The notes beneath the pieces are model-generated. The model worked only from the letters and a program-made list of their open reading frames with translations, did no database searches and had not been told where the DNA came from. 64,000 nucleotides of DNA. Origin: Candidatus Saccharimonadota bacterium (GTDB taxonomy: Bacteria; Patescibacteriota; Saccharimonadia; Saccharimonadales; UBA4665). Positions within the stretch are counted from its first letter, which is position 1, and each line of letters starts with the position of its first letter. The position numbers and the translations under genes were made by a program. The stretch covers positions 351,648 through 415,647 of the forward strand of contig PDRS01000005.1 in NCBI GenBank assembly GCA_002746885.1. Direction: 5' to 3'. Shown here piece after piece: positions 33,851 to 42,281 of this stretch.

Positions 33851-34219
33851 CTATGCCTGCTCAGCTGCTAATAAACGCCAGTATTTGCCAACACTCACCG
33901 CCGCGACGTCCTTGCCGATGCCGGCATAGTCAAGTAAGTGCTGTTCCAATGTAATCCGCCCCTGTTTGCCGTCGAGCGACTGTTCGACCTTTCCCATGCG
34001 AAATTGCACGTTGAGATCAGCAACTCGCTCGTCGAGAATGTCTCCGGCCAGCTGAGGCTCAACCAGATTATTCCAGACATCCCTGGGGTACAGGTGCAGA
34101 TACTGTCCAAATCCACGGGTAATGACTGCTCCGCTTGCAAACGTGCCGCGAAGTTCGGTCGGTATGGTTAGCCGCCGTTTATCGTCTAGTTTGCGCTGGA
34201 AGTAGTCCACCTGTGTCAT
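33851..34219 (-). CDS. mraZ: Transcriptional regulator MraZ
   Basis: 122 residues, a little shorter than the usual 140-150. Two SpoVT/AbrB-type halves are visible: DYFQRKLDDKRRLTIPTELRGTF and EQSLDGKQGRITLEQHLLDYAGIGKDVAAVSVGKYWRL. MraZ binds repeats of TGGG-type pentamers upstream of its own gene and controls the dcw cluster. Such repeats are present at 34403-34438, which supports both the call and autoregulation. Confidence 0.93.
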   Translation of the reverse strand: MTQVDYFQRKLDDKRRLTIPTELRGTFASGAVITRGFGQYLHLYPRDVWNNLVEPQLAGDILDERVADLNVQFRMGKVEQSLDGKQGRITLEQHLLDYAGIGKDVAAVSVGKYWRLLAAEQA

Positions 34220-35463: not shown

Positions 35464-36174
35464 TTACTTCCGGCTACGCCGTCCGCTCACTTTATTTCGC
35501 CGAAAATCTCTGTACGCCAGTTCTCGACGATGCTGATCAATTCCCTCTATATACTCATCAAAGCCCTGCAGCAGCGTCGAAAACCGCCGGTTCGGCACCA
35601 AGAGTTTTAGCAGTTTCTTCTCTTGCGCCAAATATTCCACCAGACTGAAAAAATCACCGTCGCCGCTCACAATAACCGCCTTGTCGTAGTTTGGCAGCTC
35701 TTTCATGGCGTACAGCACCAAGTCGGCGTCAATATTCCCCTTCACGAGCGCCTTCTCGGCGTCTTCCGTTTTTCCGCCTCCAGCTTCAGCCGACCGATTA
35801 TTTCGCGCCGTCCCGCTCGCTGCTGGCGACTGGGCATGTGCTGGACGCTGTTCGTTGGGCGTTACCCGCTGCTTTATTTCCAGCGTCGGCTTGAGCACCA
35901 CCAGAAAGCCGTGCGCATACATCTGTTCGTACAGAGCTTCATTTTCCGCCATATAGCCTATAAACATATACGCCTGCGTAACGTTGTGTTCGCTTCGAAG
36001 CCATTCGCGAAACTTCGCCCAATCCATCTTCCAGCCAATTTTCTGCACGCCGAGGTTCAGGTTTTGACTGTCGATAAACGCATAATTGCCCTTGGGCTTA
36101 CTGTTTGCTCGCGGCTGCTTTTTCCGCCACCACGGTTTTCGCCCGCCTTGTCTTTTGCTGTGTTGTTCTGTCAT
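35464..36174 (-). CDS. NYN-domain (LabA/DUF88-like) putative nuclease
   Basis: 236 residues. The NYN fold, a PIN-like metal-dependent RNase fold, is shown by NYAFIDSQNLNLGVQKIGWKMDW (first Asp), NIDADLVLYAM (Asp) and DKAVIVSGDGDFFSLVEYL (DGDF with the third acidic cluster). A disordered insert (RPAHAQSPAASGTARNNRSAEAGGG) separates the halves. Both termini are strongly basic (RKPWWRKKQPRANSKPK; RRNKVSGRRSRK), consistent with RNA binding. Leaderless start: TATACT at 36182-36187 lies 7 nt before the ATG. Likely role in RNA decay or processing (inference). Confidence 0.85.
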   Translation of the reverse strand: MTEQHSKRQGGRKPWWRKKQPRANSKPKGNYAFIDSQNLNLGVQKIGWKMDWAKFREWLRSEHNVTQAYMFIGYMAENEALYEQMYAHGFLVVLKPTLEIKQRVTPNEQRPAHAQSPAASGTARNNRSAEAGGGKTEDAEKALVKGNIDADLVLYAMKELPNYDKAVIVSGDGDFFSLVEYLAQEKKLLKLLVPNRRFSTLLQGFDEYIEGIDQHRRELAYRDFRRNKVSGRRSRK

Positions 36175-36468: not shown

Positions 36469-37980
36469 TTACCGTTTCACTATTCGTAAGATATCCTCAC
36501 CATACCGCCGCCACTTCGCCGTACCTACCCCTTTGATTGCTAGCAGAGCCTGTTCGGTCTGAGGGCGGCGCGCGGCGAGTTCTTTGAGCGTGGCGTCATG
36601 AAAAACCATGTAGGGCGCAGTTTTCTCCGCGGCGGCCTGCCGAGTCCGCCACGCTTTCAACTCCTTGAAGAGCGCTTCATCGAGCGCCGCTTCGACATCT
36701 TCTGACGCGGTTTTTTCAGCAAAATCGAGCGTTTCTTGCGCTCGCAGCTCGCTCTGTTTGTGCAGCCATTTGTCAAACTCGTGAACCGCCGGATGCATTG
36801 CCAATGCCATACGGTTCACCCCCGTCAAATAAATCCCGTCCATGCTTCGCACACGAGAAAGCGCCACGTACCCCATGCCAGGCGCAAAGCTCCGGCTCAG
36901 GTCAATTTCGGCCGCATCAAGGCTCATCCCTTGGCTTTTATGAATTGTGATCGCCCAAGCGAGCCGCAGCGGCAGCTGCGTCACCTCCGCCGTAACCCGC
37001 CCGTCTTCTTCGAGCGACCAACTGTGCGGCTCGACATGCACCTCTTTGCCGCCCGTCGTTACTACGAGCGGCGTATCGCCCACAAAATCCATCACGACGC
37101 CGCGCGTACCATTGACAAATTTTCCTCTCTGGCTATTTGCGACAAACATGACTTCAGCACCCCGCTTCAGGACGAGCTCTTCGGGAGCAAGAACGCTTTT
37201 CATAAGTTGTTCGCGCTTCGCCGCTGCACCGCTTGCGCGCATGCGGTAGGTTTTTGGTTCCGCCCCCAAGGCACGGAGATGTTGTTCGTTTATTTTATCG
37301 ACATCGACATTGTGCGCATACAACCGCGTCAGCACTGTGGTTGCCGCCGGTTTTTGCGCCAAACGCTCCTGCAAAGCAGCCTCATGATATTCGCCAACGT
37401 CACCCTGGCGCATAGCCCCCAGCAAATCAAGTAACGTATCGCCCGCCATTTGGCGATGTTGCTCAGTCAGATAGCAAATGACTGGGTCAAGCTCCTCCCA
37501 TGCAGCACTTAGGTGGGCAAAATCTGGTTCCGTTCGCTCGCGCTCTACCGGCGGCAACTGAAACAAATCGCCGACCAAAACAACCTGCAGCCCGCCGAAC
37601 GGCTTGTTGTTCATACGGATCTTCTTGGCCAGTAAATTGACCATATCAAGCCTGCGGCCATGCAACATAGAAATCTCATCTATGACGAGTATATCCGTGG
37701 CATTGTAACGCTTGACGAGCTTTGACTTTGCGCTCAAGCGCGCGAGATCATGCTGACTCAAAGTGTCGAGAATACCAAGCCCAGACCACGAGTGAATTGT
37801 GCTGCCGCCAATGTGCGTCGCTGCTATGCCAGTGCTCGCTGTGATTGCGACATTTTTACCGCGTTTTCGAGCCAACCGAATAAACTCATTCAGTACGTGC
37901 GTTTTGCCCGCCCCTGGCGCACCAGTCAAAAAAATGGACTCGCCGTCCATCATCAGTTGCAATGCCTGTGTTTGTCTCAT
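36469..37980 (-). CDS. PIF1-like SF1 helicase with C-terminal HRDC domain
   Basis: 503 residues. Walker A TGAPGAGKTHVLNEF, motif Ia-like ITASTGIAATHIGG, Walker B LVIDEISMLHG, motif III VLVGDLFQLPPV, motif IV-like TEQHRQ, and motif V/VI WAITIHKSQGMSLDAAEIDL...YVALSRV. These are PIF1/RecD2 features. Residues about 430-500 (FKELKAWRTRQAAAEKTAPYMVFHDATLKELAARRPQTEQALLAIKGVGTAKWRRYGEDIL) form an HRDC domain, normally found in RecQ and RNase D. PIF1-HRDC fusions are known in diverse bacteria. Likely unwinds DNA or R-loops in repair. Confidence 0.92.
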   Translation of the reverse strand: MRQTQALQLMMDGESIFLTGAPGAGKTHVLNEFIRLARKRGKNVAITASTGIAATHIGGSTIHSWSGLGILDTLSQHDLARLSAKSKLVKRYNATDILVIDEISMLHGRRLDMVNLLAKKIRMNNKPFGGLQVVLVGDLFQLPPVERERTEPDFAHLSAAWEELDPVICYLTEQHRQMAGDTLLDLLGAMRQGDVGEYHEAALQERLAQKPAATTVLTRLYAHNVDVDKINEQHLRALGAEPKTYRMRASGAAAKREQLMKSVLAPEELVLKRGAEVMFVANSQRGKFVNGTRGVVMDFVGDTPLVVTTGGKEVHVEPHSWSLEEDGRVTAEVTQLPLRLAWAITIHKSQGMSLDAAEIDLSRSFAPGMGYVALSRVRSMDGIYLTGVNRMALAMHPAVHEFDKWLHKQSELRAQETLDFAEKTASEDVEAALDEALFKELKAWRTRQAAAEKTAPYMVFHDATLKELAARRPQTEQALLAIKGVGTAKWRRYGEDILRIVKR

Positions 37981-38051: not shown

Positions 38052-38074
38052 CCTCTCACCGCCTTCCCCGCAAC

Positions 38075-38146
38075 CCCCAACGCATTGTGTTTTCCACTTC
38101 GTTTTAGATTGTACGGCCGTACAATCTAAAACACAATGCGTTGGGG
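38075..38146. repeat. Large nested palindrome
   Basis: Two overlapping perfect dyads. Outer arms of 19 bp: CCCCAACGCATTGTGTTTT (38075-38093) and its reverse complement (38128-38146). Inner uninterrupted 32-bp palindrome at 38101-38132, centred on TACGGCCGTA. The AAAAC at 38128-38132 belongs to both, so the two structures compete. It lies between the end of the DUF4868 operon and the helicase promoter. It is far longer than ordinary terminators here; there is no U-tract. Confidence 0.85.
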
Positions 38147-38175
38147 TGTATTGGCTGAGGAGCGCGTCGGGGAGA

Positions 38176-38218: not shown

Positions 38219-38437
38219 TCAAGATTTTTTGTGACGTTTTTGTGCAGATTGACGGATGACCTCACCTCCTGCTGCTTGAGCAAGGTTGAGAACACCTAAT
38301 GTATTCGCGGCGACCGCCAGCGGCGCAGTCAGCACCGCCCCCGCAGCAAAACAAGCAAGCGCGCCGAGCGCGTTCACGTTGCGATACCAACGCGCCATCC
38401 GCTCGCCCTTCCCTTCTTCTGGCCTGCCTGCGCCCAT
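38219..38437 (-). CDS. Small membrane protein paired with DUF4868
   Basis: 72 residues from the ATG 7 nt after the DUF4868 stop (the ORF track adds a TTG start). A polar N-terminus (GAGRPEEGKGERMARWYRN) is followed by one long hydrophobic helix or hairpin (ALGALACFAAGAVLTAPLAVAANTLGVLNLA) and a basic end (RQSAQKRHKKS). The tight spacing makes an operon certain. Kiwa systems pair DUF4868 (KwaB) with the membrane protein KwaA, but KwaA has several helices and this protein is far smaller, so it is at most an analogue. Confidence 0.6.
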   Translation of the reverse strand: MGAGRPEEGKGERMARWYRNVNALGALACFAAGAVLTAPLAVAANTLGVLNLAQAAGGEVIRQSAQKRHKKS

Positions 38438-38444
38438 GTTCAAC

Positions 38445-39449
38445 CTAAACCTCTGTTTCGTCCTTTGTCTTCAGCGGGCGTTTTTTGATAATCTCGTAGC
38501 GTTCGCCTGTAAGCGGCGATTCCCAGTAGTCTTCGTTGATGATGTTTACGAAAGTTGTCAGACTTTTGTCGTCCATAATGATAATCTTCCCCTGATCATC
38601 AGGCATAAGCTCCAAGTCCATATCTTCGGCGTACTCAAGGGCTTTGTCCTGAGAAACTTTGCCAACTTCCAGCTTTTGCAACTTCTGAACGAGCTGTTTC
38701 TTTCCCTTGAGTAATGCGTTCAACCCCACGCCTTCTGGAAAACTCAAGCCATAGACATCCATAATTTCACGAACCTTACTTTCTGCGATAGCAGCCTCTT
38801 TTGCGTCATAGCCAAACAACGTTTTTAGCTTTGATTGACTAAACACGTACACGTCTTGTTCCAAAATAAGCAGCTGCGGGTCGGTTGAAAGGCGCAGCGC
38901 TGCTTCGGCGTCAAACGGCATGAATCTATCAGCTCGAAGCATCCACCCCTGTTTTCCCTTCATGACCTGCGCTTTTGGCAGCACTTTCGCCATATAAAAC
39001 GGCTTATCCATTTCGGCGTGGCTGACGCGCACCAAAACACCCTTCATATGATTGATGTCATGCTCATCTTCCTTAAACAGCACAATTTCACGCTCCTGCG
39101 TTCGCAGCCAGGCGAGCGTTTCGCGCAGTTTTTCCACCTTAAAGACCTGTGTACGTTGCAGTACGCCCGTTTCGGCTTCTGCTTCTTCAAAACCGCGCAC
39201 AATGAGCCCTTTGTCCGCTCCTTCGAGCACATAGTCGAGCACCTCGTCGACAAATATTGGTTCAAGCTGTTTTTTGAGACTTGCGGTGAGCGCCGTTTTG
39301 TACAGCACATAGTTTTTCGAAATAAAAAAGAGTTCAATCTTTAGTTCATCTTTGTACTGAACAAGATTATTAGCCCACGCAAAAACATCTGTCTCCTGAT
39401 ATGCGTCGCGTTCTTTTTGCAGCTGCGATTCGAGCGTTTCTTCTTCCAT
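38445..39449 (-). CDS. DUF4868 (KwaB-like) protein
   Basis: 334 residues from the ATG that lies 6 nt after a TACAAT box (39456-39461); the longer ORF-track start is excluded by this spacing. The C-terminal half carries the DUF4868 signature as I recall it from KwaB proteins: LEQDVYVFSQSKLKTLFGYDAKEAAIAESKVREIMDVYG, then LVQKLQKLEVGKV, and the terminal GKIIIMDDKSLTTFVNIINEDYWESPLTGERYEIIKKR. No membrane segments. KwaB is the cytosolic partner in the Kiwa anti-phage system. Whether this homologue is defensive is unknown. Followed by a small membrane protein gene. Confidence 0.75.
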   Translation of the reverse strand: MEEETLESQLQKERDAYQETDVFAWANNLVQYKDELKIELFFISKNYVLYKTALTASLKKQLEPIFVDEVLDYVLEGADKGLIVRGFEEAEAETGVLQRTQVFKVEKLRETLAWLRTQEREIVLFKEDEHDINHMKGVLVRVSHAEMDKPFYMAKVLPKAQVMKGKQGWMLRADRFMPFDAEAALRLSTDPQLLILEQDVYVFSQSKLKTLFGYDAKEAAIAESKVREIMDVYGLSFPEGVGLNALLKGKKQLVQKLQKLEVGKVSQDKALEYAEDMDLELMPDDQGKIIIMDDKSLTTFVNIINEDYWESPLTGERYEIIKKRPLKTKDETEV

Positions 39450-39455
39450 GGGAGT

Positions 39456-39461
39456 ATTGTA
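39456..39461 (-). promoter_or_regulatory. -10 box TACAAT of the DUF4868 operon
   Basis: TACAAT, 6 nt, ATG on the minus strand: leaderless arrangement. Confidence 0.6.
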
Positions 39462-39533: not shown

Positions 39534-42281
39534 TTAGGCCGCTCGGCGTAGACGTCGTTTGAGCGGACCGCTGACACGGCTACTCCACACTCCTCGAAGC
39601 GCCTCAGCTCCCAGGTAGTAGTATGGGAAGACCGTCAGCACCAAAAATGTGCTCGAAAGCAGGCCGCATATAAGCACAACGGCAAGCCCCTGCCAAAACG
39701 GACTCGTCACCGCCAGCGGAAGCAGTGAAACCATCGCCGTCATGCTCGTCGCGAGCAGTGGCCGAAATCGCTCAGCCAGCGCCTCACGCGCCGCATCGAC
39801 TGCGCCCATACCAGCGCGGCGCGCCTGATTTGCGTAATCAGTCAGCAAAATCGTGTTTTTGATACTCAACCCAATGAGCGCAAAGAAGCCAAGCATCGCA
39901 AAGAAGCTAAAAGGATTATCCGACAGCACCAGCCCAAGCGTTACGCCAAACAAACTAAACGGTATCGCCAGAAAAATCAGCAGCGGTTGCAGCAAACTCC
40001 GGAACTGTACAGCCAGCACCGCGTAAATCACCAGCAGCACAATCGGAAGCGCCACCACGAGCGTCTGGAAACTGTTTTGGTTTTCATCCTCCTGCCCAAA
40101 GTCAAATTGCAAAGCGTCTTTTTCGACACCATAACGTGCAACCCGCTCTGGGGGGAAGGCTTTTTCAACTGCGTCTTTCGTCAGCGTCACGAGAGCCGTC
40201 GTGTCGCTGTCGACAAACCGCGCCGTCAACCCAACAAATGCGTTTCCATCAGCCCGAGTTAGCACGTCGGTAGTATCGGCTTGAATGCTTTCAAATCGCA
40301 CCTTTGAATCGTCTGCTCGGCGAATATCGGCTTTCCTGAGAAAAGCAACAACATCATCAACCAGTCGTTTTGCTCCTTCGCGATTGCTGTCGGAACGAAC
40401 TTTTGCCGTAAACGGTGAAGCCGGCGGACCGGCATCTTGCGAGCGGAAAGACACCCGCGCCTGCCGAAAGTCCTTGAAGGCAACCTTCAGTTTTTTGAGA
40501 TACTGAGGCGCCGTCGTCTCGCGCTTGCTGTAGTCTACCAGCTCTATGTAGTAGTTTGCCGACTGCGGACTAGCCGCGCCATAATGTGCGCCGTAGGCAA
40601 AATCCTCGCCCAGCACGCCCTTCAGTTTTTGCAGCGCTTCATCTGTCGCGACTTGCGCTGTTTCTATGGTTGTACCGGGGGCAAAAGCCGTCGACATTAT
40701 CAGCGTGTTTGTGTCCTTCGAGGGTGGAAAAATGTTGAATTTTACCTTTTGAAACAAAAATCCGCTTGCCCCGATAAACAGCAAACTCAGCAACACTGCG
40801 CTGCCGCCCACGAGCGACATTTTGAGCCGGCTATGCTGCGCCCATAACATCGGTGAAGCCAGTCCGCGAGCAACCTTTTGTTCCACATTGACCGCAATCT
40901 CTCGTTCAGCGTGTTTGCCTGTGTGTTTTTTGCCAAGCATAACGTATCGAGCCACAAACGGAATAAATATGAGCGCCAGAATAACACTTAGGGACAGCGC
41001 AGCGATAATAGTAACCGGGATAGCTCGAATAAACTCGCCCAATACACCACCCACAAACAACAGCGGCGCAAAACTCAGTGCCGCTGCAAGTGTTCCTGCG
41101 AGCATAGCGCGCCCCACCCTGCCGACCGCCGTAGCCACAATGTCGTCGGAGTCTTTTTTCCGCCGGCGCTGCACGTCGAGCGCTTCAACCATAATAATCG
41201 TATCGTCCACGATAAGGCTCAAACCAAGTATGAGCGAAAAGAGCGTGATGGTGTTCAGCGTATATCCAATAAGCTCAAGCAGACCAAGCGCCGCCAAAAT
41301 AATCACGAGTAAAGACAGCACAGTCATAAACGACGCCCGCACCGCAATAACCACTGAGCCAACAACCAACACAGCAAGCAAACCTTGTATCAGCGTCCAC
41401 TGCAGCTCCGAAATTTGCTGTCGTATACTCGGCGCAAAACTTGCGCTCAGTTTTGTCGAAAAGCCTTCTGCTGTATGTTTCGTATTGTACGCCTCAACCG
41501 CCGCCTGAATCTGATCGTTAAACGCAACGACATCAGCGCCATCTACTATGGTAAATCCTATCGGCACAGAGCTATAGAAAACAGTTTTTCCGTCTTTTCG
41601 TTCACCAAAACGTTCAAACTTTTTCTGAACCTCGGCCGCCTGCCCCGTCAGTGGGTTTACCGCCTTACTCAGCGGACTAATGATAGATACATCTTGCACC
41701 AGACTCAGGTTTTGCGAACGGAAAAATCGGGCAGCCGCTTCTGCGTCGGGCACGAGTTTTTTCTCTGGCATACTTGGGTTTGCTGGCGAGAAGAACGAAA
41801 CCACTGCATCATCGCCGCGATCCGTAAAACCAAAACGCGCAGCCTCAAACGACAGTTTTGCGCCAGGCGGCACGATTTGCTTGTCGACAATCTCAGCTTG
41901 AAGCTGCTTTGACGCTGCGGCCGCATCGACATCTTCTTCGTACTCCACGATGACGGTCGAAAAGTTCGCCAAGCTCTTTGCCCGCACCGACTTCACGCCT
42001 GATTGTTTTAGCAAATACTGGCTGACAGGCTTTCCGACCTCGCGGTCGACGCGTTCGGCGTCGTTGACAAAATACGTTCCCTGACCAATCGCAACTGGAA
42101 TGTTGATAGGCGGAAAACCCTCGCGTTTGAGCAGCGTCGAATAGCTCAAAATACCAAACCCAGCTACGACAAGCAGCAGCGCAGCAGTAAACCGCGGACG
42201 AGCAAAAAAGAACATAGCCAGACGCTGCAGCGGCCGCAATACCGTTGTTTTTACCGTAGAATGCCGTGCTGTTTGTTTCAT
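39534..42281 (-). CDS. RND-family (AcrB-like) exporter
   Basis: 915 residues; AcrB-type pumps have about 1030. Twelve membrane segments: one near residue 35, five around 290-450, one near 495 and five near 740-890. The TM4 proton-relay motif is LSLIVDDTIIMVEAL with the Asp pair, and the partner half ends LIGLSIKNTILLTDYANQARR with the conserved TM10 Lys. Two porter loops are shorter than in AcrB. In a monoderm-like or symbiotic cell without an outer membrane it would act without a TolC channel. No membrane-fusion protein gene is adjacent, so substrate is unknown. Confidence 0.9.
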   Translation of the reverse strand: MKQTARHSTVKTTVLRPLQRLAMFFFARPRFTAALLLVVAGFGILSYSTLLKREGFPPINIPVAIGQGTYFVNDAERVDREVGKPVSQYLLKQSGVKSVRAKSLANFSTVIVEYEEDVDAAAASKQLQAEIVDKQIVPPGAKLSFEAARFGFTDRGDDAVVSFFSPANPSMPEKKLVPDAEAAARFFRSQNLSLVQDVSIISPLSKAVNPLTGQAAEVQKKFERFGERKDGKTVFYSSVPIGFTIVDGADVVAFNDQIQAAVEAYNTKHTAEGFSTKLSASFAPSIRQQISELQWTLIQGLLAVLVVGSVVIAVRASFMTVLSLLVIILAALGLLELIGYTLNTITLFSLILGLSLIVDDTIIMVEALDVQRRRKKDSDDIVATAVGRVGRAMLAGTLAAALSFAPLLFVGGVLGEFIRAIPVTIIAALSLSVILALIFIPFVARYVMLGKKHTGKHAEREIAVNVEQKVARGLASPMLWAQHSRLKMSLVGGSAVLLSLLFIGASGFLFQKVKFNIFPPSKDTNTLIMSTAFAPGTTIETAQVATDEALQKLKGVLGEDFAYGAHYGAASPQSANYYIELVDYSKRETTAPQYLKKLKVAFKDFRQARVSFRSQDAGPPASPFTAKVRSDSNREGAKRLVDDVVAFLRKADIRRADDSKVRFESIQADTTDVLTRADGNAFVGLTARFVDSDTTALVTLTKDAVEKAFPPERVARYGVEKDALQFDFGQEDENQNSFQTLVVALPIVLLVIYAVLAVQFRSLLQPLLIFLAIPFSLFGVTLGLVLSDNPFSFFAMLGFFALIGLSIKNTILLTDYANQARRAGMGAVDAAREALAERFRPLLATSMTAMVSLLPLAVTSPFWQGLAVVLICGLLSSTFLVLTVFPYYYLGAEALRGVWSSRVSGPLKRRLRRAA

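What the first reader, a model, noticed from the sequence alone, without database searches (positions are those of the whole stretch)
38219..39461. DUF4868 (KwaB-like) gene paired with a tiny membrane protein
Seen: the C-terminal block resembling DUF4868, a leaderless TACAAT promoter, and a 72-residue one-helix membrane protein 7 nt downstream. Known: KwaB (DUF4868) works with membrane protein KwaA in the Kiwa anti-phage system. No KwaA-like four-helix protein is nearby. Inference: a minimal two-gene variant in a CPR bacterium where a small membrane peptide replaces KwaA, or a non-defence role.
Basis: partly seen in the sequence, partly recalled or inferred. Interest (0 to 1): 0.72.

Follow-up and report, generated by a model that had tools for sequence, protein, structure and literature searches.

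The report
KwaB-fold core gene beside Pif1 helicase

Summary
The gene is real and is a distant, full-length relative of KwaB. It passes the Pfam KwaB cut-off, and its predicted structure (pLDDT 86) matches only the solved KwaB structures in the PDB (E 4e-14, 326 columns). It is not a Kiwa system: it scores 44.7 bits against a cut-off of 200 for true KwaB, and no KwaA was found in 93 genomes of the family. What is conserved is different. The KwaB-like gene is single-copy, present in 94 of 105 good genomes of a sister family and 25 of 53 of the window's family, absent from the viral, phage and plasmid collections searched, and sits in a housekeeping region. In 112 of 113 genomes with both genes on one contig, a Pif1-family helicase lies within 6 kb on the same strand, including clades where the order is swapped. 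The best reading is a KwaB-fold DNA-binding protein serving a helicase in genome maintenance. The pairing is shown; the mechanism is inferred.

The parts
38445..39449 (-). KwaB-like (PF16162, former DUF4868) gene, 334 aa, ATG start
39456..39461 (-). TACAAT -10-like hexamer 6 nt upstream of the ATG; probable leaderless start
   Evidence: not tested experimentally
38219..38437 (-). 72-aa one-helix membrane ORF; sporadic gene, not a conserved partner
36469..37980 (-). Pif1-family SF1B helicase with C-terminal HRDC domain, 503 aa: the conserved neighbour
   Evidence: PIF1 2.8e-34, HRDC 9.7e-26; linkage
35464..36174 (-). NYN-domain protein, a frequent member of the same neighbourhood
33851..34219 (-). 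MraZ; start of the division/wall cluster that borders this neighbourhood
38070..38150 (.). long inverted repeat (MITE/REP-like) between the small ORF and the helicase

Best explanation
A vertically inherited, single-copy KwaB-fold protein of Saccharibacteria that works with the adjacent Pif1-HRDC helicase in chromosome maintenance. Proposed mechanism: the KwaB-like protein binds DNA, as KwaB does, and recruits, loads or restrains the helicase at stalled forks, R-loops (RNase HI is a frequent neighbour) or recombination intermediates. Shown: the fold, the conservation, the neighbourhood and the linkage. Inferred: DNA binding by this clade, physical contact with the helicase, and the substrate.
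For: Only KwaB structures match the model. Homologs are in 126/151 genomes of family f18 and 35/93 of the window's family f1, almost always single copy. Both genes lie on one contig in 113 genomes; in 112 they are within 6 kb, and in all 113 on one strand. Gaps are below 300 nt in 58 and as short as 7-14 nt in many, which suggests an operon. In 11 genomes the order is swapped but the genes stay near each other. Among loci with at least 6.5 kb on each side, Pif1 is within 3 kb in 44/53, against 2/53 for MraZ and 12/53 for the tRNA synthetase, which are themselves recurrent neighbours. In f1 no KwaB-positive genome lacks the helicase (genus-level Fisher p = 0.001). KwaB-like divergence tracks RsmH (r = 0.76), MraZ (0.69) and Pif1 (0.65), as expected of vertical descent. 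No relatives in viral contigs, phages or plasmids. A review states that KwaB binds DNA without cleaving it (PMC12904381).
Against: 31 KwaB-positive genomes of f18 show no helicase hit at the threshold used, and co-occurrence there is not significant (p = 0.32), so the helicase is not indispensable. Many f1 genomes keep the helicase and lack the KwaB-like gene. No DNA-binding residues were tested. The region is fairly syntenic overall, so part of the linkage is background.
Confidence: 0.45

Rival explanations
1. A resident, lineage-fixed anti-phage function: the KwaB-like protein, alone or with the Pif1 helicase, binds incoming DNA and blocks its replication, without KwaA.
For: KwaB fold; KwaB is a DNA-binding defence effector (PMC12904381); the helicase has local similarity to helicase parts of some PADLOC systems.
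Against: Single-copy, about 90% present in good f18 genomes, vertical, in a housekeeping region, absent from mobile records. Defence genes are usually patchy and mobile (general knowledge). The PADLOC matches of the helicase cover only shared ATPase/HRDC domains.
Confidence: 0.25
2. A chromosomal DNA-binding protein with another job (nucleoid organisation, transcription, DNA uptake or recombination); linkage with Pif1 reflects ancestral gene order and shared transcription only.
For: General synteny of the region; the KwaB-like gene survives without a helicase hit in 31 f18 genomes; Saccharibacteria are naturally competent (PMC10633639).
Against: Linkage with Pif1 is much tighter than with the other neighbours and survives order swaps and insertions.
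Confidence: 0.24
3. One reading: a minimal Kiwa in which the 72-aa membrane protein replaces KwaA.
For: Adjacent in the window, in G004 and in G476.
Against: Small ORF homologs in 6/93 genomes of the family, next to the KwaB-like gene in 3/35; not next to it in the other congeners examined; KwaA absent in all 93.
Confidence: 0.04

Closest known systems
KwaB of Kiwa (PF16162; NF041623; PDB 9mrx, 9mtn, 9nyu, 9o0i)
   Same: Full-length fold match (E 4e-14, prob 1.00, 16% identity); shared C-terminal DY..S.LTG..Y-like signature; similar length.
   Different: No KwaA, 44.7 bits against the 200-bit equivalog cut-off, lineage-specific conserved TD.F.WANN N-terminus, chromosomal core gene near Pif1 instead of a kwaA-kwaB pair.
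Genuine kwaAB loci on plasmids of Emticicia, E. coli and Salmonella
   Same: Encode PF16162-type proteins.
   Different: In all three examined, kwaA lies directly upstream of kwaB; in Saccharibacteria it does not.
Pif1/RecD2-type SF1B helicases with HRDC
   Same: The neighbour at 36469-37980 has PIF1, Pif1_2B and HRDC domains.
   Different: Pairing with a KwaB-fold protein was not found described in the papers searched.

Membership tests
KwaB fold family (PF16162) | profile score above the gathering cut-off | tested here: met
   34.5 vs 26.3 bits; all 55 homologs match at E <= 0.1
KwaB fold family (PF16162) | KwaB three-dimensional fold | tested here: met
   six PDB matches at E <= 0.001, all KwaB chains; whole-chain TM-score only about 0.5 with 13 A rmsd, so domain arrangement may differ
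Kiwa system | KwaB equivalog score | tested here: not met
   44.7 vs 200 bits
Kiwa system | KwaA membrane partner, adjacent | tested here: not met
   NF041622 absent in 93 genomes of the family; no KwaA identified in the neighbourhood survey
Kiwa system | anti-phage activity and DNA binding | not testable with these tools
   needs experiment
Two-gene variant with small membrane protein | conserved adjacency of the small ORF | tested here: not met
   3 of 35 KwaB-positive genomes of the family

The most novel reading that the evidence does not exclude
The KwaB fold has a housekeeping branch: in Saccharibacteria it is a core chromosomal DNA-binding factor that forms a maintenance module with a Pif1-HRDC helicase (and often RNase HI), and Kiwa's effector and this protein descend from a common DNA-handling ancestor.
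Probability: 0.4. Interest if true: 0.68.

Novelty: new variant of a known kind. Interest (0 to 1): 0.55.

Why it matters
It shows an anti-phage effector fold kept as a resident gene in a reduced-genome episymbiont lineage, gives a partner (Pif1) to test, and warns that single-gene defence surveys could wrongly count Kiwa in Saccharibacteria. Genetic tools exist for some cultured Saccharibacteria (PMC10633639), so the role is directly testable if a cultured strain carries the gene.

Tried and rejected
The small membrane ORF as partner: rejected for lack of conservation. Mobile origin: no relatives in viral contigs, phages or plasmids. KwaA elsewhere in the genome: none found. RNase HI as an obligatory third member: within 3 kb in 27/53 loci only, no RNase HI motif in the window, and its divergence does not track the KwaB-like protein. 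PDB by single sequence: no hit; by profile only KwaB at E 0.11, later settled by fold. The Kiwa paper (PMC12348683) is not in the library. Papers on Saccharibacteria with Pif1: none found.

Full report
What is there. The 334-residue gene lies at 38445-39449 (-) and the 72-residue ORF at 38219-38437 (-), 7 nt downstream. TACAAT at 39456-39461 ends 6 nt before the ATG. A TANNNT hexamer at a similar place recurs in many relatives of the window's family, so a leaderless transcript is plausible, though not tested.

The KwaB relationship is real but distant. PF16162 (DUF4868, now named KwaB) is matched above its cut-off, PADLOC KwaB models match over nearly the full length, and all 55 Saccharibacteria homologs aligned match PF16162. 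The NCBIfam KwaB equivalog model gives only 44.7 bits against 200. A single-sequence PDB search found nothing, and a profile found only KwaB at E 0.11. The AlphaFold2 model (pLDDT 86.4, pTM 0.77) matched six PDB chains at E <= 0.001, all KwaB, best E 4.2e-14 over 326 columns. TM-scores near 0.5 with large rmsd suggest two domains placed differently. Profile-profile comparison with three plasmid KwaB proteins aligned 300 columns at probability 86%.

It is not Kiwa. In the three plasmid kwaAB loci inspected, kwaA lies directly upstream of kwaB. NCBIfam KwaA has no match in 93 genomes of the window's family, and none of the recurrent neighbour families examined was identified as KwaA.

The small ORF is not the partner. 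Homologs are found in 6 of 93 genomes with a profile; the single sequence finds five of them clearly, besides one marginal hit in another genome. They lie next to the KwaB-like gene in the window's genome, G004 and G476 only; in G023 the homolog is about 8 kb away, and in G465 on another contig. The ORF family itself is conserved enough to be a real gene.

The conserved neighbour is a Pif1-family helicase with HRDC domain, 36469-37980. The KwaB-like gene is in 35/93 genomes of the window's family, including all 7 of the genus, and in 126/151 of a sister family, 94/105 of the good genomes. The helicase was sought in the same genomes. Of 113 genomes with both on one contig, all have them on the same strand and 112 within 6 kb; 58 have gaps below 300 nt, some 7-14 nt; in 11 genomes the helicase lies upstream instead of downstream. 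Other genes come and go between them.

The locus is a housekeeping region. In 59 loci the recurrent neighbours are RNase HI, a class II tRNA synthetase (read as glycyl-tRNA synthetase from its sequence), RecO, NYN, GH1, CofD, MraZ and RsmH. Pif1 is within 3 kb in 44/53 well-flanked loci, against 27 for RNase HI, 12 for the tRNA synthetase and 2 for MraZ. Protein distances of the KwaB-like gene track RsmH, MraZ and Pif1 (r 0.76, 0.69, 0.65), consistent with vertical descent; they do not track RNase HI or the tRNA synthetase, whose clusters may mix paralogs. Within the phylum, PF16162 above its cut-off was found only in this order, and no relatives were found in plasmids, phages or viral contigs.

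Mechanism. A review states that KwaB binds DNA, does not cleave it, and acts with KwaA at the membrane (PMC12904381). A resident KwaB-fold protein without KwaA, tied to a helicase of a family known for forks, G-quadruplexes and R-loops (abstracts of PMC8998199 and PMC3999857), is best explained as a DNA-binding partner of that helicase in genome maintenance (confidence 0.45). A fixed defence role (0.25) or another chromosomal role (0.24) are not excluded. Weaknesses: 31 sister-family genomes have the KwaB-like gene without a helicase hit, co-occurrence there is not significant, and nothing biochemical was tested.

Novelty. The fold is known; its use as a Pif1-linked core gene was not found described in the papers searched, but most subscription papers are not held.

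Noticed in passing
window 38070-38150: An 81-nt long-hairpin inverted repeat (z -8.7) whose palindromic core GATTGTACGGCCGTACAATC occurs at 8 places on one contig of the own genome (6 exact, 2 with one mismatch), at 2 in G001 (one mismatch) and at none in five congeners: MITE/REP-like element.
   Followed up: partly
G524:C1:157185-157979: A second, divergent KwaB-like copy in one genome of the sister family.
   Followed up: no
alignment A1, C-termini of L023-L042: Many sister-family KwaB-like proteins end in a conserved ...EGEPPRG tail that is absent in the window's family; possible interaction motif.
   Followed up: no
N-termini in alignment A1: A recurring DIL(A) motif near the N-terminus of many homologs (MxQDILAP, ADILG), absent in the window's own protein.
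   Followed up: no
window 39534-42281: 915-aa RND/AcrB-type transporter directly upstream; also found upstream of the KwaB-like gene in congeners G003 and G005 (cluster c59).
   Followed up: no
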